Shown here one piece after another: positions 28,265-36,910 of a stretch of DNA of 43,946 nt; the stretch's first letter is position 1, and every line of letters begins with the position of its first letter. A program made the translations under genes and the position numbers. The notes beneath the pieces were generated by a model. That model ran no database searches. It had not been told where the DNA came from and saw only the letters and a list, made by a program, of their open reading frames with translations. Source of the stretch: Candidatus Gastranaerophilales bacterium (lineage in GTDB: Bacteria; Cyanobacteriota; Vampirovibrionia; Gastranaerophilales; Gastranaerophilaceae); the NCBI GenBank assembly GCA_944325565.1, contig CALVAT010000008.1, positions 1 through 43,946 of the forward strand, given 5' to 3'.

Positions 28265-28921
28265 ATGAAAAGATTTAGTTTTTTAATTACGGTGATTTTA
28301 ACTTGTTTTTTAAGTTTGCCTGTTATGGCTGATGTAATGCCTTATTACACAGGTGCTATAAGTAATGAAACTATAGGTTTTTTGCAGGTGCCTCAGAGTT
28401 TTAAACTTTATCTTTACCCGAGAGAGGATTCTCAAAATATTGAAAATGTAAGCTGGACAAGTACATCTGTAAAACTTAATAAATCAACTATTGAGCCGTC
28501 AGCACTTTTTGCTGCACAAATAGAATCTAAAGACCTTGCTTTTTGCATGGTTGTAGACATGCAAGATGACTGGTACAAAATAATTTACGACAAAACAGAT
28601 AATAAAACAGGATGGATAAAAGTTTCTAAAGCCGATGATTTTTGGAGTTTAAAAGATTTTTATGCATACTACGGGCATAAGTACGGCCTTTATTACATGA
28701 AAAATATTGATTACCGTAAAAGAGGGTACTATAGCGGAGCGGACAAACTCTCTCAAAAACTCGGAGGTTTTACATATATCCGTTCCATAAAACTTAATAA
28801 AATCAGCGGAAACTGGGCTCTTGCAACAATTCTGGATATGGGCGGACAGCTAAAAATAGGTTATATACAATGGAGAGAAGACGATGGCTCCATTATTCTC
28901 TTCCCCAAATTCATAAACTAG
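28265..28921 (+). CDS. Exported SH3-like domain protein
   Basis: Predicted secreted or periplasmic protein. Signal peptide at residues 1-22 (FLITVILTCFLSLPVMA). The body is mostly beta-strand, with a bacterial SH3-like stretch at about 92-118: FCMVVDMQDDWYKIIYD then NKTGWIKVS. A C-terminal beta domain ends WREDDGSIILFPKF. Such domains often bind peptidoglycan or other envelope ligands, but no specific partner is visible. Length 218 aa. The ATG lacks a strong ribosome site, and the spacer 28116-28264 is A/T-rich with no operator that I can define. Its end overlaps the convergent ATPase gene by four bases. Confidence 0.75.
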   Translation: MKRFSFLITVILTCFLSLPVMADVMPYYTGAISNETIGFLQVPQSFKLYLYPREDSQNIENVSWTSTSVKLNKSTIEPSALFAAQIESKDLAFCMVVDMQDDWYKIIYDKTDNKTGWIKVSKADDFWSLKDFYAYYGHKYGLYYMKNIDYRKRGYYSGADKLSQKLGGFTYIRSIKLNKISGNWALATILDMGGQLKIGYIQWREDDGSIILFPKFIN

Positions 28922-31900
28922 ATTTTAATTTTGTTTAACTGACAAAAAGTTTTAAAAGAATTAAAATTCTTTTGAACATCATCCGTAACAGCATCTATTT
29001 CTAGAGCTTCGGCAAGAGATAAAGCTTTTTTGTATGCAGTAACTGCATTTTGTGCGTATGTAGAAGCATTTTGCGGTTTTTTAGAAACCATTTCTTCAAG
29101 ATATTTTGCATAAAGCTGATATACAGAAACCTTTAACAGCTTCATATTATATTTTTTAGTTATCCTTAAAGCTTTTTCTATATACATTTTGGCCGATTCC
29201 ATATCACCCTTAATAATGTATATTTCAGCAATAAGTTTTTTGAGGAGCACCATAAAATAGTAATTTGAAATTTTAGGACTCTTAGCTACTTCCAGTGCTT
29301 TTTGTGCAATATGCAATGATTTTTCACTTCCGTCAGTTACAAGCGTCAGTTTGGCTATATAATACCAGCACAAAAATGCCCCGACAGCGATTTTTTCTTT
29401 TGCAAACACAGTAATCTGTTCATTAAAAATATTCAAAGCCTTAGAAAGATTGCCTTCTTCCTGCAAAATTTTACCTAAAAATACCTTGAGAAGATTTTTA
29501 ACGAGCACATCGTTGTAGTTGTTTGCAAATGTAACAACAGAGAACAAATCAGCCTTAATGTTCTGCCAATCATGTCTATGCAGTTTGTTTAAGATGTTAA
29601 TAAAATTCCACAGTGAAATAACTTCCGGCTCAACAACCTCTTTTGCAGTTTCCTGTGTCAAAGCTATCAATATATCATCAGATTTTTTCAAACTACCCTG
29701 CATTGAATAAGCAAGAGCTTTCGCAAGCTTAACTCTTTGAAGATAATTTTTGTTATTCACATGATTTTTGGCAACAATTTCATCAATAAGTTTTAATATC
29801 TCAAAACTTTTGTTATTTCCCTGAGAAATCAACGCCATTGCTACGGTTAGATTCCCCTCGAGCCACGCTTCATAAATAACATCCATAGATATTCCGTTAA
29901 CAGGTATCTCATGAGAGAGTGCCTTTTCTACAACAGGAATAATGTCATTGCTTGCCGTATTATAGATTTCTTCGGCATTTCCCAGACAGAACATAGCATT
30001 CAATTTTTTCTGTTTAATTAATGCACATTCAAGCTTTTTGTCAGGGCTTTCAATGAGTTTTAACGCCGTATCAACAGACTCAATAACCCCGTAATAATTT
30101 CCGGTCAAAGAGCAGCTTTTGCTGAGATATCCGGCAAGTTCTATTATTTTAGGCTTGTTATCAACTTTCATAGCATTGTTTATCGCTGCAGATAAATAAG
30201 CTATAGCCTCAGCAGGCCTGCTTTGATAAATCAACTTGCCCATACGTTCCTGTATATTGTTAATTATTAGGACTTCGTTTTCAGGCTTCTCTTCCTGCGC
30301 TATTTTCAAACACTGCTTTTGAGAAAGTGTCCACAAATGCTCATCGCCGAGATATGCACAGAGTTTTATATTGTCTGTCCAGATATTTAATGCCAGCAAT
30401 TTTTGGTTCAAGCTTTGAGCAATAAGAGCCTTAAGTGCATTGCTTGAAAGCGTAAAAGAATTAACAATATCAAAAATCTTTTCATTTAAAAGTACAAAAT
30501 CCTTGCTCTGCTTTGCCTTTTCATATACAAAACGCCAGAGCAGTGTATTTTTAAACTCATAAATATTATTATTAAACTGTGAAATGTAAGCATAAGTAGA
30601 GAGCATATTAATTATATTCTGGAACTGCGAAGAATCAATTTTCATTATGATTCCCAGCAGTTTTACATTAAATTTATTGCCCATTATTGCTGCTGTACAC
30701 AGCGTTTTATACGCAAGCGGATGTTTTCTTTGCAAATAATTTAATCTAAGAATAAGAATCTCATATAGATTCTTAGGCAAATTCATTGCAATAGGGTTTT
30801 GATTGTATCTAATTTTGCCGCTTTCCTTATAAAAAGCCTTATTTTCATTTAAAAGAACAATCATTTGCTCAACATAAGCACTATTGCCCTGCGATAAATT
30901 ATAAATTTTTTCAAAAACCTGTTTCGGCAGCGGATTTGAACCTTTTAAGAACATTTTTATCAGGTTATCTGCATCTCTCGGTGACAGCTTTGATAACTTT
31001 ACATCCTCATACTGATTTTGTAAAAGTTTTTCTGAATAAAAATATCCCTGTGTAATACGGCTGTCCTTATAAGAAATAATAAGTTTTATATTATCGCCGA
31101 GATGCCCGTTATCAACAAAATATGACAAAAATTCATAAGACGCACCGTCTATCATATCAAAATCATCAATAATAATAATGAGTTTTGATTTTTTAGACAA
31201 CTCGCAAATAAGCTTTTCCAGAAGAGCAAAAGTAATATCTTTGTTAGTCAAAATATCTTCAAATTTTGCCGTCATGCTGGGGTATAAAAAGTTGAAAAGA
31301 TCTGATATCTCGTCAGGAGTAAAAAACGGCAAACTTTCAGAGAGCATACGTTTTGCCTGACGTAAAAAGTCGTTTGACATATTTGAAAAATTCGGCATGT
31401 TAAAGAAGGTAAGAACAATTTCCTGAAATATTCCAAACGGACTTATTTGAGAATTCGCACTGCATTCCCCCCAAAGCCATATATAATTTTGTTTTAACAA
31501 ATCGCTAAAAAGATATCTCAAAACAGTAGATTTGCCGCATCCTTCGGGCGCACTAAGTCCTATAATCAACTTTTCAGGCTGTTTTAAAGCAGCTATAATG
31601 TGATTTTTTGCTTTTATTTGATCATATTCTTTTGGTTCATAAGGCTGAATTGAATCCTCCTCCGGCAAAATTTGCGGAGAATTAGAATCCTCAGGGAACT
31701 CGGGTTTTAAAACATCTTCCGACTTATTTTTATTATTTTTTTTCGGTGGCTGAACATTATTAATCGGTGATTTTTGTGTAAAGTTTTCAATATTTTTAAC
31801 TATTTTTTCTTCAGACACGACAATCTTGGAATTAATAACAGGCTTGTTCTGCGGCGTTCTTAACTTTTCCCTTTTCAGCCCCTCGGATATTCTATCATCA

Positions 31901-32259
31901 CCATCAGGAACAGCCAGAAGTTCTTTAGAAATTCCTGTATAAATTTTATTTTTGGGCACATCAATAGATACAGAAGTTGAAACAGAATCCTTCATATTTG
32001 ATAAATCAGTGATAGCCACCTCGGCCTTATTCTTTGTAAAAGGATAGCTGCATTTTCTACAGCTTTTAGCGCTGGGAAGGTTTATGCTGTTACATTTTTT
32101 GCAATGTTTTAAAAGCTGCAAACCGCATCTTTTACAATATTCAGACGTTATAGGATTCACCTGTCCGCAAACAGGGCAGACAGATTGTACTTTAGTGTGG
32201 CAATAGCTGCATCTCAGCTGATTATCAGGTATAATTTTTTTACATTTTATACAAAGCAT
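28918..32259 (-). CDS. Zinc-ribbon / P-loop ATPase / TPR-like protein
   Basis: Large cytoplasmic protein of unknown function. Three zinc ribbons open it (Cys pairs 3/6 with 17/20, 28/31 with 42/45, 53/56 with 67/70). A Lys/Pro-rich linker leads to an AAA/STAND-type ATPase domain (about 215-520): P-loop APEGCGKST (237-245) and Walker B KLIIIIDDFDMID. Residues 600-1110 are helical repeats of TPR character, such as SYLSKSCSLTGNYYGVIESV and ALNIFNEQITVFAK. The order ATPase-TPR resembles MalT/adenylate-cyclase-type signalling proteins, but no cyclase, kinase or HTH is attached. It is the third gene of the anti-sigma/sigma run, 75 bases after the sigma gene stop. The ribbons may bind nucleic acid or RNA polymerase. 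Confidence 0.8.
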   Translation of the reverse strand: MLCIKCKKIIPDNQLRCSYCHTKVQSVCPVCGQVNPITSEYCKRCGLQLLKHCKKCNSINLPSAKSCRKCSYPFTKNKAEVAITDLSNMKDSVSTSVSIDVPKNKIYTGISKELLAVPDGDDRISEGLKREKLRTPQNKPVINSKIVVSEEKIVKNIENFTQKSPINNVQPPKKNNKNKSEDVLKPEFPEDSNSPQILPEEDSIQPYEPKEYDQIKAKNHIIAALKQPEKLIIGLSAPEGCGKSTVLRYLFSDLLKQNYIWLWGECSANSQISPFGIFQEIVLTFFNMPNFSNMSNDFLRQAKRMLSESLPFFTPDEISDLFNFLYPSMTAKFEDILTNKDITFALLEKLICELSKKSKLIIIIDDFDMIDGASYEFLSYFVDNGHLGDNIKLIISYKDSRITQGYFYSEKLLQNQYEDVKLSKLSPRDADNLIKMFLKGSNPLPKQVFEKIYNLSQGNSAYVEQMIVLLNENKAFYKESGKIRYNQNPIAMNLPKNLYEILILRLNYLQRKHPLAYKTLCTAAIMGNKFNVKLLGIIMKIDSSQFQNIINMLSTYAYISQFNNNIYEFKNTLLWRFVYEKAKQSKDFVLLNEKIFDIVNSFTLSSNALKALIAQSLNQKLLALNIWTDNIKLCAYLGDEHLWTLSQKQCLKIAQEEKPENEVLIINNIQERMGKLIYQSRPAEAIAYLSAAINNAMKVDNKPKIIELAGYLSKSCSLTGNYYGVIESVDTALKLIESPDKKLECALIKQKKLNAMFCLGNAEEIYNTASNDIIPVVEKALSHEIPVNGISMDVIYEAWLEGNLTVAMALISQGNNKSFEILKLIDEIVAKNHVNNKNYLQRVKLAKALAYSMQGSLKKSDDILIALTQETAKEVVEPEVISLWNFINILNKLHRHDWQNIKADLFSVVTFANNYNDVLVKNLLKVFLGKILQEEGNLSKALNIFNEQITVFAKEKIAVGAFLCWYYIAKLTLVTDGSEKSLHIAQKALEVAKSPKISNYYFMVLLKKLIAEIYIIKGDMESAKMYIEKALRITKKYNMKLLKVSVYQLYAKYLEEMVSKKPQNASTYAQNAVTAYKKALSLAEALEIDAVTDDVQKNFNSFKTFCQLNKIKI

Positions 32260-32334
32260 TAGAAAAACCGCTTTTGTTTAAGCTTATTATATTATAAAGA
32301 TTAGTTCAATTACATACGTAAACATTCGACAGCA

Positions 32335-32928
32335 TTAAAAATGAGATTTAACTATTCTTAATATTTCTATTAATCTCTTGCTTACTTCTGCCTGAGAAAT
32401 ATTTACCTCTTTAGCAATATCTTTTTGCTTAAACTCTTTAACATATCTCAGATAAAAGATCTTCAAAAATTCTTTTGAAGGATTTTCCTTTTGAGCAATC
32501 AAAACTATATCCACAATTTTTTGAAGAAGGTCTTTTCTGACGACCTTTTCTTCAAAAGAATCACGCGGATCAGCTATATCATAAACAAAAGGTTCATATA
32601 CAACAGCAGGTTCAGGTGCTTTGACAACAATTTCAGGTTCCTGAATTTTTGCAGGCACCGGATTTATAAGCACCTCGTGAGTGCTCACATACTTGTTATC
32701 CCTGCGTCTTACCCTGCCGTTTTGTTTTAACACAGTCAAAATTGCCGTATTGGCAACTTTGGCTATATAGTTTTCAATATCTTTAATATTTACATTATCA
32801 AATAACGAGTAGGATCTTTTGTATGTTTCGGAACAAAAATCCTCTATTAAATCCTCATTACCTTTGAACTTGTTATTAGATTTAACTAACTTCTCTATAA
32901 GCTCTCTTTGTTCGTTTATAGTATCCAA
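32335..32928 (-). CDS. Two-domain (ECF-like) RNA polymerase sigma factor
   Basis: Predicted alternative sigma factor. Residues about 20-75 match region 2: EDLIEDFCSETYKRSYSLFD, then IENYIAKVANTAILTVLKQN and RVRRRD. A Pro/Glu-rich linker at 90-115 (AKIQEPEIVVKAPEPAVV) takes the place of region 3. Residues 145-195 match region 4 with the helix-turn-helix: FLKIFYLRYVKEFKQKDIAK, then EVNISQAEVSKRLIEILR. Two sigma domains and 197 aa place it with ECF or ECF-like factors. The start is TTG at 32928; an in-frame stop lies 18 bases upstream and the ribosome site is weak, so coupling from the previous gene is possible. It lies 60 bases downstream of the anti-sigma-like gene, the usual sigma/anti-sigma linkage in reverse order. 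Confidence 0.85.
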   Translation of the reverse strand: MDTINEQRELIEKLVKSNNKFKGNEDLIEDFCSETYKRSYSLFDNVNIKDIENYIAKVANTAILTVLKQNGRVRRRDNKYVSTHEVLINPVPAKIQEPEIVVKAPEPAVVYEPFVYDIADPRDSFEEKVVRKDLLQKIVDIVLIAQKENPSKEFLKIFYLRYVKEFKQKDIAKEVNISQAEVSKRLIEILRIVKSHF

Positions 32929-32988
32929 TTTTGCAATCCAATTCTATAAATATAAAATTAACTTACTTGATTATATCATATCATAGAA

Positions 32989-35900
32989 TTAGAAATTAAT
33001 TATTAAAGTTAAGAAATAATCCGAGTTATAATTTTTCAATTTTGGAACACTAACATACTTCAGAGTATTTTTTATGCTTTTTGTAATAATTGCGTCTATT
33101 TTATCAGACCCGCTGGATTCCAGTACCTGTATACCTTTCATGGTATTGTCAGGTGCAATTTCAAACGTAACTTTTACACTATTATTAAAAGCAACATCCG
33201 AAGCATTCGCCAGATCGTTTTGTAAATTTAATTGAATATTTTTACCTGCAGTTTGTAAATATTCTTTAACAGAAGGTTCAACTGCAAGTTTTTCACTCAC
33301 CTGCCAAGAAAGTTTTGTTATAGAAATAGCGGCAGGTTTATCCGAGAAGGAATTCGTCATAGACTTATTGATATCCTGAGAAACAGCGCCGGAGGTAGTG
33401 TCTTCTTCACTCTGACCTGCTGCATTATTTTGAAAATCAAAAACCTGATTGTCCTGTGCTGTATCAACAGAATCATTATTAGCAGCAGCAATATTTTTTT
33501 GATACATATAATATCCGCCGGCCGCACCGCCTATTGCAAGTAATGCAATAAGAGCACCCGCAATAGCTAGTTTTTTAGTCTTTTTTACAGCTTCAGCGCT
33601 CATAGGCTCCTGTGAAAGATCCAGCTCTACCTGTTCACCCTCCTGAGGTGCGCTTTGTTCATCAAACAGATTTTCAATTTCACCATTTTCAGCTGCCTCC
33701 AGATTTTCATCAGAATCCGGCACGAACTCTTCTCCCTCATCTTTTGCCGGTGTTTCATCTGATTCTCCGGCAAACGGTTCATAATCGGCCTCATCTTCTT
33801 TGTTTTGATAATCATCCGTATCATCGTCTTCATCAGAAAGAAGCCCAAGCAAATCATCGTCCAGCAATTCCTGCAAATCCTCATCATCTGAATTTGCGCT
33901 CTTTGACTGTTCAACTTCGTCCTCAACTTTTTGAGGAGAAGGAATTTGTTCTTCCGGTTCATTTTGTGACAGAGCGATTTCCGGCTGAGGTTCAGCCTTT
34001 TCACTATCTGATTCTAAATTTTCATAGTTGTAATCAGGAAAATCAAAATCAGCAACATGTTGTTCTGTTTCATCTTCAAAAGACTCAATAACAGGCTCCT
34101 GCTTGTTCAACTCAAAAACATCAGCATCTATAGCTGCAGCCTTGTTATCTTCCTCAATTTTTTCAGATTCATCAGCCTCAACTTCCAAATCATCATATTT
34201 TAATTCAACAGGCTCCTGAGGCTGAGAAGACGCCGGCCAGTCCTCCTTATCAGATTCAATAGCAAATTTTGAATCATAAGCCATAACAGTATCAGTTATA
34301 TTAATATTTTGCATTAAACTGTCCGTCTTTGTGTTTTCCTTTTCAGGTTCCTGAGACGGTTCAATTGTATCAAGAGTTTCCAAATCCTCGAGTTCCAACA
34401 AATCAGAACCATTTAAGTTTGATATCTCATCATTTTCCGGCATTGCAGGTTCTTCTTGTTCTTGCACTGCACTGCGAAGCGGAGTTGAAGCGACAACATT
34501 TTCTTCCGGTTGTTCTTTAACACTTTCCGGTTCAGCAGAAATTTCTTCTAATTCCCCGACTTCCTCAAGCTCTCCAATATCATCAATATTACCTAAATCG
34601 TTGTCATCCAATGATATTTCAGGTATTGCAGCATCATCCTCAGACAGAGTTTCGAGCTGCAATGTATCTAAAGATTCAGCTGTATCTGTTTTGATATTCT
34701 CATCTTGCGATATTTCATCAACAACAGCAGGTGTTTCATCAGCAGAATCTTCCACAGCCAGAGGTTCAAGTCCGTCCAAATCCAGCGATATATCATCGGA
34801 TGAGATTTCTTCAAGAGAATCTTCCACAGCCAGAGGTTCAAGTCCGTCCAAATCCAGCGATATATCATCGGATGAGATTTCTTCAAGAGAATCTTCCTCA
34901 ATTAACATATCATCATCTGCCCTGAGTTCATCTGAAGTTTGCTGAGCAACAGCAGGTTCTTCTGTTACATCATCAGCAGCAATTTGTAAATCCTCTGTTT
35001 CGGTCAATGTTTCTTCATCTTCTTCAAGCTTAAACGGCTCTTCAACAGGCTCGCTTGCAAACGCATCAATAGAAGCATTAAGTTCATCAAACGAATCTTC
35101 AGAAGAAACTTCCTCTATTGCAGGCTGTTGTTCAACTTCTTTTTCTGAAACTTCATTATTAGAAATATCATCTATTTCTGTTATCTGTAGAATATCTTCA
35201 TCGTTACTTTCTTCCGGTAACTCAAGAATAGAGCTGCCATCATTATCATCAAGGAGCAATAAATCATCCTCAACAGATTCTTCAACAAGTTTTTCCGGTT
35301 CAGCAGAAGTTTTTTCAGAATCTGAACCTCCACTTTCACCTTCCTTTGTATCAGCAGCAAAAGCCTGTTCTTCAGCATTTACACCCTCTGGAGAAAGAAC
35401 ACCGTCAGAGATTTTTGAAGACTCGGCCGCAGCCAGAACAGAACCCGCAGCAGCTCCGGCAATAACTGTTTTTGCAACCGGAGGTACAGCAGCAGGAGTA
35501 TCTACCTTTTTGGAAGGCCTCGGGAAGTCCTCACTCGCTTTCTCAACCAGTGCCATATGAGCGATAGCTGCTTGATCCACCTCCTCTTTGTTTCCGGATA
35601 AAACACTTAAAGTACTGTCGTTTAAAAGCTCATGATAATTTTTCAATTGCGAAAGTATATCATCAAAATCATTGATATCACAGAATGTATCACGGCAAAC
35701 CGTACAATCAGCAACGTGTTTTATAAAATAGATTTTGTCAGCCTCTGCTGCCTGCTCATCAATCATGCTTACGCATAAAGCGAGAATGTTTTCATGTTCT
35801 TCTTGCGAATATTTTTTCGGAGTTATTTTCAATGCTTCGGCATAAGAAATAAACTCATCAAAAGGTTTTAGTATGTCTAAAGGATAGGTGTAATATTCTT

Positions 35901-36309
35901 CACCATTTTTTTCATATTTAAGCTCTTTTTCCGGAATAAATCCTAAAAATTCAATTTCTTTTAAGGAATTATCAAATCTTACGACAATATAGGCTTCAGG
36001 TTTAATATCGTATTTTACGTGCAGCTTTGGAACAGTAAAAGTCGTATTATTAAAGGTAACTCTTACATCAAACCTTGCATTGTTAGCATAAATATCGGCA
36101 ATTTCAATCTCTTTTGCAAAGACAGCGGACTTATACAGACTGTGGTTAGAAAGTGTTTTAAGCCCATTTTCCGTAAGGTATTTAGCTGTTGCATTCGCAG
36201 CAATCCCGAGAGCATAAACTCTTTTTCTCAAATAAGTATCGTCCACTTTGCATGCAACAAACTTTGCACTATCCAGTACATCTTCCCCGATATTTACCTT
36301 TATATTCAT
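32989..36309 (-). CDS. Giant anti-sigma-like membrane protein: zinc finger, acidic linker, TM, TonB-C-like domain
   Basis: Probable membrane regulator of the adjacent sigma factor. Residues 1-160 are a beta-rich domain (VRVTFNNTTFTVPKLHVKYD, AYIVVRFDNSLKEIEFLGFI) with some resemblance to cyanobacterial DUF1822. Residues 198-205 carry the anti-sigma zinc motif His198-x3-Cys202-x2-Cys205 (HVADCTVC). From about 260 to 905 runs an Asp/Glu/Ser-rich, probably disordered linker with a perfect 24-residue duplication. One membrane segment follows at about 913-936 (LAIAGALIALLAIGGAAGGY, positive inside). The outer C-terminal part (about 995-1106) resembles TonB C-terminal domains (VTFEIAPDNTMKGIQVLESS). 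Anti-sigma factors are normally 100-350 aa, so 1106 is exceptional. It is the first gene of the three-gene run. Confidence 0.75.
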   Translation of the reverse strand: MNIKVNIGEDVLDSAKFVACKVDDTYLRKRVYALGIAANATAKYLTENGLKTLSNHSLYKSAVFAKEIEIADIYANNARFDVRVTFNNTTFTVPKLHVKYDIKPEAYIVVRFDNSLKEIEFLGFIPEKELKYEKNGEEYYTYPLDILKPFDEFISYAEALKITPKKYSQEEHENILALCVSMIDEQAAEADKIYFIKHVADCTVCRDTFCDINDFDDILSQLKNYHELLNDSTLSVLSGNKEEVDQAAIAHMALVEKASEDFPRPSKKVDTPAAVPPVAKTVIAGAAAGSVLAAAESSKISDGVLSPEGVNAEEQAFAADTKEGESGGSDSEKTSAEPEKLVEESVEDDLLLLDDNDGSSILELPEESNDEDILQITEIDDISNNEVSEKEVEQQPAIEEVSSEDSFDELNASIDAFASEPVEEPFKLEEDEETLTETEDLQIAADDVTEEPAVAQQTSDELRADDDMLIEEDSLEEISSDDISLDLDGLEPLAVEDSLEEISSDDISLDLDGLEPLAVEDSADETPAVVDEISQDENIKTDTAESLDTLQLETLSEDDAAIPEISLDDNDLGNIDDIGELEEVGELEEISAEPESVKEQPEENVVASTPLRSAVQEQEEPAMPENDEISNLNGSDLLELEDLETLDTIEPSQEPEKENTKTDSLMQNINITDTVMAYDSKFAIESDKEDWPASSQPQEPVELKYDDLEVEADESEKIEEDNKAAAIDADVFELNKQEPVIESFEDETEQHVADFDFPDYNYENLESDSEKAEPQPEIALSQNEPEEQIPSPQKVEDEVEQSKSANSDDEDLQELLDDDLLGLLSDEDDDTDDYQNKEDEADYEPFAGESDETPAKDEGEEFVPDSDENLEAAENGEIENLFDEQSAPQEGEQVELDLSQEPMSAEAVKKTKKLAIAGALIALLAIGGAAGGYYMYQKNIAAANNDSVDTAQDNQVFDFQNNAAGQSEEDTTSGAVSQDINKSMTNSFSDKPAAISITKLSWQVSEKLAVEPSVKEYLQTAGKNIQLNLQNDLANASDVAFNNSVKVTFEIAPDNTMKGIQVLESSGSDKIDAIITKSIKNTLKYVSVPKLKNYNSDYFLTLIINF
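34745..34897. repeat. 72-bp perfect tandem duplication in the anti-sigma linker
   Basis: A 72-base unit occurs at 34745-34816 and again, without mismatch, at 34817-34888, followed by nine bases of a third copy. It encodes 24 residues (LEEISSDDISLDLDGLEP plus LAVEDS) twice. The identity at DNA level points to a recent, in-frame expansion that lengthens the acidic linker. Confidence 0.95.
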
Positions 36310-36339: not shown

Positions 36340-36369
36340 TATAGATTACAGTTCTTAAAAAAATATTCC
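36340..36369 (-). promoter_or_regulatory. Candidate ECF-type promoter of the anti-sigma/sigma/ATPase run
   Basis: On the minus strand GGAATA (36369-36364) and TCTATA (36345-36340) are 18 bases apart, about 30 bases before the first ATG. This resembles the GGAAC / TCTA pattern of ECF promoters and would allow autoregulation. A housekeeping reading (TTGGAA, then TAATCT) is also possible. Confidence 0.35.
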
Positions 36370-36496
36370 AAAACCATGTAATAAATGTTATAATGTAACA
36401 AAATGTTTCATAATTCTATGCATTACCGATTCCGGTAGCAATAAAAAGTTTTCTGCAGTTTTGTATAAACACAGTGTGTAAAAAAGGAGTGTAAGC

Positions 36497-36910
36497 ATGT
36501 CAACAAGTTTCTCAACAATAACGCCAATGAATCCGGCAACAATTTCTAAAAAACCGACGTATGCCGTAAACAGTCAACCACAGCCTGCTGCAAGCACGCC
36601 AATGGACGCACCTTACGGTCAAGAACCCGCTAAAAAGAAAAGCAACTGGTTCTTAAAAACACTTACTGCAGTCGTTGTATTAGCAGCTGCAACTGCTCTG
36701 GGAAGAAAATTCTTGCCTGAAACATTCAATCCCGCAGCAAAATTGGCTGATAACGCAAATTTATGGCAAAAAGGTTTGCATTATGCAAAATTAGGCATTG
36801 CTAAAACAGGCGAATTTATCAATACAAATATCGAAAAAGCCTACGAAGCAACCAAAAACTTCTTTAATAAAAAGAAAGAACCGCCTAAAGAAGCACCTAA
36901 AGAAGCATAA
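36497..36910 (+). CDS. Small single-pass membrane protein of unknown function
   Basis: Not recognised. The 137-aa protein has a disordered N-terminus rich in Pro, Ser, Thr and Gln (1-50), a Lys cluster (AKKKSNWF), one hydrophobic segment at about 53-69 (LKTLTAVVVLAAATALG), then amphipathic helices (LHYAKLGIAKTGEFINTNIE) and a Lys/Pro/Glu tail with PPKEAPKEA. No cysteines or catalytic motifs. The ATG has a strong AAAAGGAG site. A TATAAT at 36389-36394 with TTCCAA 17 bases before it is the likely promoter, divergent from the anti-sigma operon. It is followed by a clear terminator, so it is a single-gene unit. Small abundant envelope proteins of this kind are common in the suspected lineage. Confidence 0.72.
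   Translation: MSTSFSTITPMNPATISKKPTYAVNSQPQPAASTPMDAPYGQEPAKKKSNWFLKTLTAVVVLAAATALGRKFLPETFNPAAKLADNANLWQKGLHYAKLGIAKTGEFINTNIEKAYEATKNFFNKKKEPPKEAPKEA

What the first reader, a model, noticed from the sequence alone, without database searches (positions are those of the whole stretch)
28918..36309. Candidate new envelope-to-transcription system: giant zinc-finger/TonB-C membrane protein, sigma factor and zinc-ribbon ATPase-TPR protein
Seen: three minus-strand genes with gaps of 60 and 75 bases. The first has HxxxCxxC (His198, Cys202, Cys205), ~640 acidic residues, one membrane segment (about 913-936) and a C-terminal domain like TonB-C. The second has sigma regions 2 and 4. The third has three zinc ribbons, a P-loop ATPase and TPR-like repeats. 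Known: HxxxCxxC (ZAS) proteins bind and hold ECF sigma factors, usually encoded beside them. Inferred: an outer signal sensed through the TonB-C-like domain is passed through the long linker to release the sigma factor, and the ATPase-TPR protein acts as a further switch or scaffold. I do not know this combination from described systems.
Basis: partly seen in the sequence, partly recalled or inferred. Interest (0 to 1): 0.8.

Follow-up and report, generated by a model that had tools for sequence, protein, structure and literature searches.

The report
Membrane anti-sigma, sigma factor, ATPase operon
Gut-dwelling non-photosynthetic cyanobacteria carry a conserved gene set that very probably lets a giant envelope-spanning protein hold a transcription factor (an ECF sigma factor) in check and release it on an unknown signal; the basic trick is known, but this protein architecture, and its link to a little-studied cyanobacterial gene pair, appear undescribed.

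Summary
The window is from a Candidatus Gastranaerophilales genome. Three minus-strand genes encode: (i) a 1106-aa protein with a DUF1822 domain, an internal class I anti-sigma (zf-HC2/ZAS) domain, a ~675-aa acidic linker, one membrane helix and a TonB-C domain; (ii) a 197-aa ECF sigma factor with sigma2 and sigma4; (iii) a triple-zinc-ribbon, AAA_16, TPR protein. The DUF1822 gene lies directly upstream of the sigma gene in 75 of 76 loci; the ATPase gene directly downstream in 70 of 77. An ECF-type promoter, GGAATA-N13-TGYNNTC, precedes the operon in 62 of 70 loci (0.24 expected), which predicts autoregulation. The anti-sigma domain matches RsiW and RslA. Its TonB-C sensing step is not: the genome has no TonB-dependent receptor plug, and the membrane helix lacks TonB's histidine. 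The ATPase is an accessory gene. In photosynthetic cyanobacteria DUF1822 also pairs with sigma genes (one sentence in Kaur et al. 2021), but there without zinc finger or TonB domain. The DUF1822 core probably has a PD-(D/E)XK nuclease-like fold. New variant of a known kind; ligand, regulon and the ATPase's role are unknown.

The parts
36344..36369 (-). Predicted ECF-type promoter of the operon: -35 GGAATA (36364-36369), -10 TGTAATC (36344-36350), about 34 bp before the start codon
   Evidence: Conserved upstream of the DUF1822 gene in 62 of 70 loci against 0.24 expected; the only match to the full motif, one mismatch allowed, in the own genome
32989..36309 (-). Giant membrane protein: DUF1822 - class I anti-sigma (ZAS) - acidic linker - TM - TonB_C
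35809..36288 (-). DUF1822 N-terminal domain (aa 8-167); predicted PD-(D/E)XK nuclease-like fold with D72...D81-x-R83
   Evidence: PF08852 33-36.6 bits, cut-off 25; AlphaFold pLDDT 92; structure alignment
35644..35802 (-). Class I anti-sigma / ZAS domain (aa 170-222), ligands H172, H198, C202, C205
   Evidence: zf-HC2 in 44 of 53 homologues; RsiW Z 6.8 and RslA Z 6.0; H172 at least 90% conserved
33577..35604 (-). Acidic, presumably disordered linker, variable in length
   Evidence: 221 D/E against 29 K/R in aa 226-905
33508..33576 (-). Single transmembrane helix (aa 912-934), basic on its N-terminal side (N-in, C-out)
32992..33237 (-). TonB_C-like extracytoplasmic domain (aa 1025-1106)
   Evidence: TonB_2 in 34 of 34 homologues; the only PDB profile hits are TonB, E 0.13 to 0.32
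32335..32928 (-). ECF sigma factor: sigma2 about aa 1-85, disordered linker 86-127, sigma4 about aa 130-197
   Evidence: TIGR02937 above cut-off; AlphaFold; structure-alignment rows are sigma factors almost throughout
28918..32259 (-). Zinc-ribbon / AAA_16 ATPase / TPR protein (accessory gene of the operon)
   Evidence: DZR 43.1, AAA_16 43.5, TPR_12 32.9 bits, all above cut-off; adjacent in 70 of 77 loci
32050..32253 (-). Three zinc ribbons (aa 3-70)
   Evidence: CxxC at 3/17, 28/42, 53/67, conserved in all homologues examined
31084..31602 (-). AAA_16 P-loop ATPase domain (aa 220-392)
29026..29514 (-). TPR / MalT-like repeats (aa 916-1078)
   Evidence: TPR_12 and TPR_MalT hits

Best explanation
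It is a self-regulated ECF sigma / membrane anti-sigma operon. The sigma factor transcribes the operon from the GGAATA-N13-TGYNNTC promoter. The giant protein sits in the inner membrane with its N-terminal DUF1822 and class I anti-sigma (ZAS) domains in the cytoplasm and its TonB-C-like domain in the periplasm. The anti-sigma domain clamps sigma2 and sigma4 and keeps the sigma factor off RNA polymerase. A change felt by the periplasmic domain (tension, wall or outer-membrane contact, or proteolysis) or by the DUF1822 domain frees the sigma factor, which raises expression of the operon and of so far unknown genes. The long acidic linker gives the anti-sigma head freedom to move. In most of the family a zinc-ribbon STAND-like ATPase-TPR protein adds a cytoplasmic input. 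Shown by computation: gene order, domains, folds, promoter motif. Inferred: sigma binding, topology, signal, release, role of the ATPase.
For: Sigma factor in 56 of 59 relatives. DUF1822 gene directly upstream in 37 of 40 loci (L078 found by profile) and in 75 of 76 in an overlapping named set. Four-ligand signature H-x(24-26)-HxxxCxxC in 61 of 71 proteins, tending to be lost together in some lineages, as known for class I anti-sigma families (PMC7406223). zf-HC2 in 44 of 53; profile hits RsiW, RslA, DdvA; fold matches RsiW (Z 6.8, rmsd 3.9, 62 residues) and RslA (Z 6.0, rmsd 3.3, 56 residues). Sigma fold: the top Foldseek matches are ECF sigma factors such as SigH, sigmaE and SigW. Promoter with the GGAA -35 element typical of ECF sigma factors in 62 of 70 loci. 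Positive-inside rule places the N-terminus inside. The flanking genes are not conserved while the cassette is.
Against: No complex could be modelled, so sigma/anti-sigma contact is untested. The window protein alone gives no zf-HC2 hit. The ZAS domain is internal, not N-terminal as in textbook cases. No target promoter other than the operon's own was found, so an output is not shown. Family f6 has the sigma gene without the DUF1822 gene beside it. The signal and the TonB-C partner are unknown.
Confidence: 0.78

Rival explanations
1. The signal is cytoplasmic: the DUF1822 domain and/or the STAND-like ATPase-TPR protein are the sensors, and the TM plus TonB-C part only anchors the anti-sigma protein to the envelope.
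For: DUF1822 is paired with sigma genes across the phylum even where there is no TM or TonB domain. [quoted passage not shown] The ATPase is adjacent in 70 of 77 loci.
Against: TonB_2 is present in all 34 homologues scanned with invariant residues, which suggests more than a tether. The ATPase is not next to the sigma gene in families f2, f3, f4.
Confidence: 0.3
2. The giant protein is mainly a structural or motor-linked TonB-like envelope protein (GltJ/AgmX-like); its zinc finger binds something else and the sigma gene merely controls its expression.
For: The general layout (cytoplasmic N-terminus with a zinc-binding module, one TM, TonB-like C-terminus) resembles GltJ/AgmX (the TonB-like C-terminus is in PMC8262864; the zinc module from my own knowledge). 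The operon promoter is the only strong target of the motif found.
Against: The four-ligand spacing, zf-HC2 hits and RsiW/RslA fold matches point to an anti-sigma domain, and it is next to a sigma gene in 75 of 76 loci.
Confidence: 0.12
3. It is part of an immune or cell-death system: a nuclease-fold DUF1822, a STAND ATPase and a sigma factor, in line with the cyanobacterial EACC2-caspase context.
For: PD-(D/E)XK-like fold of the DUF1822 domain. Cyanobacterial cassettes combine sigma, DUF1822 and CHAT proteases with sensor domains, proposed as apoptosis/immunity-like (PMC8195603).
Against: No meaningful PADLOC hit. The cassette is near-universal and single-copy in the order, unlike defence genes. 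The nuclease lysine is replaced by arginine.
Confidence: 0.08

Closest known systems
ECF sigma factors with membrane class I anti-sigma factors (SigW-RsiW, sigmaE-RseA, SigL-RslA)
   Same: Two-domain sigma next to a single-TM anti-sigma protein with a cytoplasmic three-helix class I domain (Hx3Cx2C in RsiW and RslA); autoregulated operon with a GGAA-type -35 element
   Different: Here the anti-sigma domain is internal, behind a DUF1822 domain, followed by a very long acidic linker and ending in a TonB-C domain; the operon starts with the anti-sigma gene and often ends with an ATPase-TPR gene
Cyanobacterial ECF sigma - DUF1822 - EACC2/CHAT neighbourhoods (Kaur et al. 2021, PMC8195603)
   Same: DUF1822 gene beside a sigma gene, with a third large signalling protein; short-form cyanobacterial DUF1822 shares the D...(D/E)xR motif
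   Different: Cyanobacterial DUF1822 proteins seen here lack zinc finger and TonB domain, and nearly all lack a TM; gene order is sigma then DUF1822; the third gene is CHAT plus CHASE2 or a periplasmic-binding domain
Cyanobacterial 'SigR' type, region 4 - NB-ARC - TPR_MalT (PMC11119718)
   Same: Couples a sigma region 4 to a STAND-type ATPase with MalT-like TPR
   Different: One fused polypeptide there; separate genes here, with zinc ribbons and an anti-sigma protein
GltJ/AgmX of Myxococcus
   Same: Cytoplasmic zinc module, one TM, TonB-like C-terminus (partly from own knowledge)
   Different: Motility machinery; no anti-sigma domain known to me, no sigma partner

Membership tests
ECF (group 4) sigma factor | Sigma-70 family profile above cut-off | tested here: met
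   TIGR02937 47.3 bits, cut-off 42.9
ECF (group 4) sigma factor | Only sigma2 and sigma4, no sigma3, short linker | tested here: met
   AlphaFold: helices in 2-69 and 132-196, disordered 86-127; sigma structures fill the match lists
ECF (group 4) sigma factor | Autoregulatory promoter with a GGAA-type -35 | tested here: met
   62 of 70 loci; recognition by this sigma is inferred
ECF (group 4) sigma factor | Binds RNA polymerase and directs transcription | not testable with these tools
   needs biochemistry
Class I anti-sigma factor (ZAS) | Hx3Cx2C with an upstream fourth ligand | tested here: met
   61 of 71 homologues; H172, H198, C202, C205 in the window
Class I anti-sigma factor (ZAS) | Three-helix anti-sigma fold / zf-HC2 profile | tested here: met
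   44 of 53 homologues, though not the window protein itself; RsiW Z 6.8, RslA Z 6.0
Class I anti-sigma factor (ZAS) | Encoded beside its sigma factor | tested here: met
   75 of 76
Class I anti-sigma factor (ZAS) | Binds and inhibits the sigma factor | not testable with these tools
   single-chain predictor only
TonB energy transducer | TonB_C domain | tested here: met
   TonB_2 27.5 bits, cut-off 22
TonB energy transducer | N-terminal TM anchor with the conserved histidine that meets ExbB-ExbD | tested here: not met
   TM at 912-934, LAIAGALIALLAIGGAAGG, no His
TonB energy transducer | TonB-dependent receptors in the genome | tested here: not met
   No Plug domain in G000, 93% complete
DUF1822 (PF08852) | Profile above cut-off | tested here: met
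   33-36.6 bits, cut-off 25, but profile positions 3-170 of 370 only
PD-(D/E)XK nuclease | Common fold | tested here: inconclusive
   Nearly all leading structure-alignment rows for aa 1-162 are PD-(D/E)XK folds, best Z 8.4, near the level seen by chance; no Foldseek match with E below 0.001
PD-(D/E)XK nuclease | Catalytic D...(D/E)xK | tested here: not met
   D72...D81-x-R83: K replaced by R
STAND / AAA_16 - TPR regulator | P-loop ATPase followed by TPR | tested here: met
   AAA_16 43.5, TPR_12 32.9 bits; TPR_MalT below its cut-off

The most novel reading that the evidence does not exclude
DUF1822 is a phylum-wide, catalytically dead PD-(D/E)XK-fold signalling module that partners ECF-like sigma factors in Cyanobacteriota. 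In the gut lineage it was fused to an anti-sigma domain and a TonB-C envelope sensor and coupled to a STAND ATPase, which makes a signalling class in which a nuclease-fold domain and an ATPase jointly gate a sigma factor.
Probability: 0.22. Interest if true: 0.8.

Novelty: new variant of a known kind. Interest (0 to 1): 0.6.

Why it matters
Gastranaerophilales are widespread uncultured gut bacteria, and I found no described envelope signalling system for them. An operon conserved across the order, with a precise promoter motif, gives a directly testable entry to their stress or envelope regulation. The link to cyanobacterial DUF1822-sigma pairs offers a first functional hypothesis for a large domain family of unknown function: a partner or regulator of sigma factors.

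Tried and rejected
Regulon search: the full promoter motif, one mismatch allowed, occurs once in the own genome and at the operon in every genus member. A looser motif gave recurrent hits, and the eight inspected all lie inside coding sequence, so no further target could be named. Sequence profiles of the sigma factor found no PDB relative at E 0.01; fold search did. Foldseek alone gave no significant match for the DUF1822-ZAS model. PADLOC gave nothing useful. The sigma profile did not detect the 220-240-aa genes upstream of short cyanobacterial DUF1822; two of four had weak region 4 hits, so those are only probable sigma factors. Literature: no paper on sigma/anti-sigma systems in Gastranaerophilales in the held library, and none on zf-HC2 with TonB that bears on this; subscription papers and supplementary tables of ECF classifications could not be checked.
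Full report
What is there. The three minus-strand ORFs are real, with the stated coordinates and gaps of 60 and 75 bases, and without terminator-like sites in the gaps. Named relatives recovered with the sigma alignment are almost all labelled Candidatus Gastranaerophilales or unnamed gut bacteria, so the genome (2.06 Mb, 93% complete) belongs to that gut lineage of non-photosynthetic Cyanobacteriota.

The giant protein. Its first ~165 residues are a DUF1822 domain (PF08852, above cut-off). Residues 170-222 form three helices that carry H172, H198, C202 and C205. zf-HC2, the Pfam model of zinc anti-sigma domains, hits 44 of 53 homologues, although not the window protein itself at the threshold used. 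A profile of the region finds RsiW (E 0.01), RslA (0.085) and DdvA (0.39), all anti-sigma factors, among its four best PDB sequences. An AlphaFold model (mean pLDDT 92.4) aligns there with RsiW (Z 6.8, rmsd 3.9, 62 residues) and RslA (Z 6.0, rmsd 3.3, 56 residues). The four ligands are present in 61 of 71 homologues and tend to disappear together in some lineages that keep the helices, a pattern in line with the mixed zinc and non-zinc groups reported for class I anti-sigma families (PMC7406223). Then come an acidic linker (aa 226-905: 221 D/E, 29 K/R), which contains a perfect 72-bp tandem repeat, one membrane helix with basic residues on its N-terminal side, and a TonB-C domain (TonB_2 in 34 of 34 homologues; the best PDB profile hits are all TonB).

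The DUF1822 fold. Structure alignments of aa 1-162 are dominated by PD-(D/E)XK folds (Hjc, Eco15I, SPARDA subunits, PvuII; best Z 8.4). This is near the background level for such searches, and Foldseek alone had no E below 0.001, so I treat the fold as probable. Conserved D72 and D81-x-R83 sit where the D...(D/E)xK motif would be, with K replaced by R. Short cyanobacterial DUF1822 proteins show the matching VAD...LECR pattern. I read it as a probably inactive nuclease fold.

The sigma factor. TIGR02937 is passed. The AlphaFold model has two confident domains joined by a disordered linker, and the fold searches return ECF and other sigma factors over both domains.

Conservation. The sigma gene is in 56 of 59 relatives. 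In 37 of 40 loci taken across the order, the DUF1822 gene lies directly upstream. In a second, partly overlapping set of 80 named loci, adjacency is 75 of 76 upstream and 70 of 77 downstream for the ATPase. The surrounding genes differ even within the genus, so the cassette is kept as a unit. The ATPase is not next to the sigma gene in families f2-f4 and some species of the window's genus: it is an accessory.

The promoter. Upstream of the DUF1822 gene lies a TTTTGGAATATTTTTTT...TGTAATCTA element. The core GGAATA-N18-TC occurs in 62 of 70 upstream regions, against 0.24 expected from Markov-shuffled sequences (maximum 2 in 100 draws) and none on the opposite strand or with the pattern reversed. 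Spacing is constant. GGAA at -35 is typical of ECF sigma factors (general knowledge). In each genus genome the full motif is found at this operon, and looser hits that were inspected lie inside genes. The simplest reading is that the sigma factor activates its own operon; other targets are unknown.

Wider context. In 26 of the 30 best cyanobacterial DUF1822 loci a sigma-like gene lies beside DUF1822, there without zinc finger or TonB domain. Other cyanobacterial loci have a probable short sigma gene, DUF1822 and a CHAT protein with CHASE2 or a periplasmic-binding domain. Kaur et al. 2021 noted ECF sigma plus DUF1822 near EACC2-caspase genes in one sentence (PMC8195603). Sigma region 4 fused to NB-ARC and TPR_MalT is reported in cyanobacteria (PMC11119718), a parallel for a link between sigma factors and STAND ATPases.

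How it most likely works. The cytoplasmic ZAS domain holds the sigma factor; the periplasmic TonB-C domain or the DUF1822 domain receives a signal; release of the sigma factor raises the operon and unknown targets; the ATPase-TPR protein adds a further input. Steps shown by computation: domains, folds, gene order, promoter. Inferred: binding, topology, signal, release. TonB-C is unlikely to work as a TonB energy transducer, since no receptor plug was found and the helix lacks the histidine, although ExbB-like proteins exist.

Verdict. The sigma/anti-sigma core belongs to a known kind. The architecture of the anti-sigma protein, its DUF1822 head, its TonB-C tail and the ATPase partner make it a new variant, and I found no description of it in the held library.

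Noticed in passing
window 35809-36288: DUF1822 N-domain aligns with PD-(D/E)XK nuclease folds, with D72...D81-x-R83 conserved also in short cyanobacterial DUF1822.
   Followed up: partly
window 34744-34897: Perfect 72-bp tandem repeat (2.1 copies, 100% identity) inside the acidic linker, which suggests recent length change.
   Followed up: no
window 36380-36420 region: A second conserved element (TTGTTACA-like) lies just upstream of the GGAATA box in the genus and family; possible activator site.
   Followed up: no
window 36497-36910: Divergent gene for a 137-aa protein with one hydrophobic segment, seen beside the operon in the genus only; no Pfam hit.
   Followed up: partly
window 28265-28921: Convergent gene for an exported SH3-like protein overlapping the ATPase gene by 4 bases; found there only in the closest relatives.
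   Followed up: no
L099-L101, downstream of the sigma gene: In family f3 the sigma gene is followed by an exported ~190-aa protein gene and a radical SAM gene that looks like NifB (by eye).
   Followed up: no
L116-L124: Cyanobacterial cassettes: probable sigma, DUF1822, CHAT fused to CHASE2, periplasmic-binding or PsbP-like domains.
   Followed up: partly
L203: Record titled 'uncultured Clostridia bacterium' carries this Gastranaerophilales operon (69% identity): probably a mislabelled MAG.
   Followed up: no
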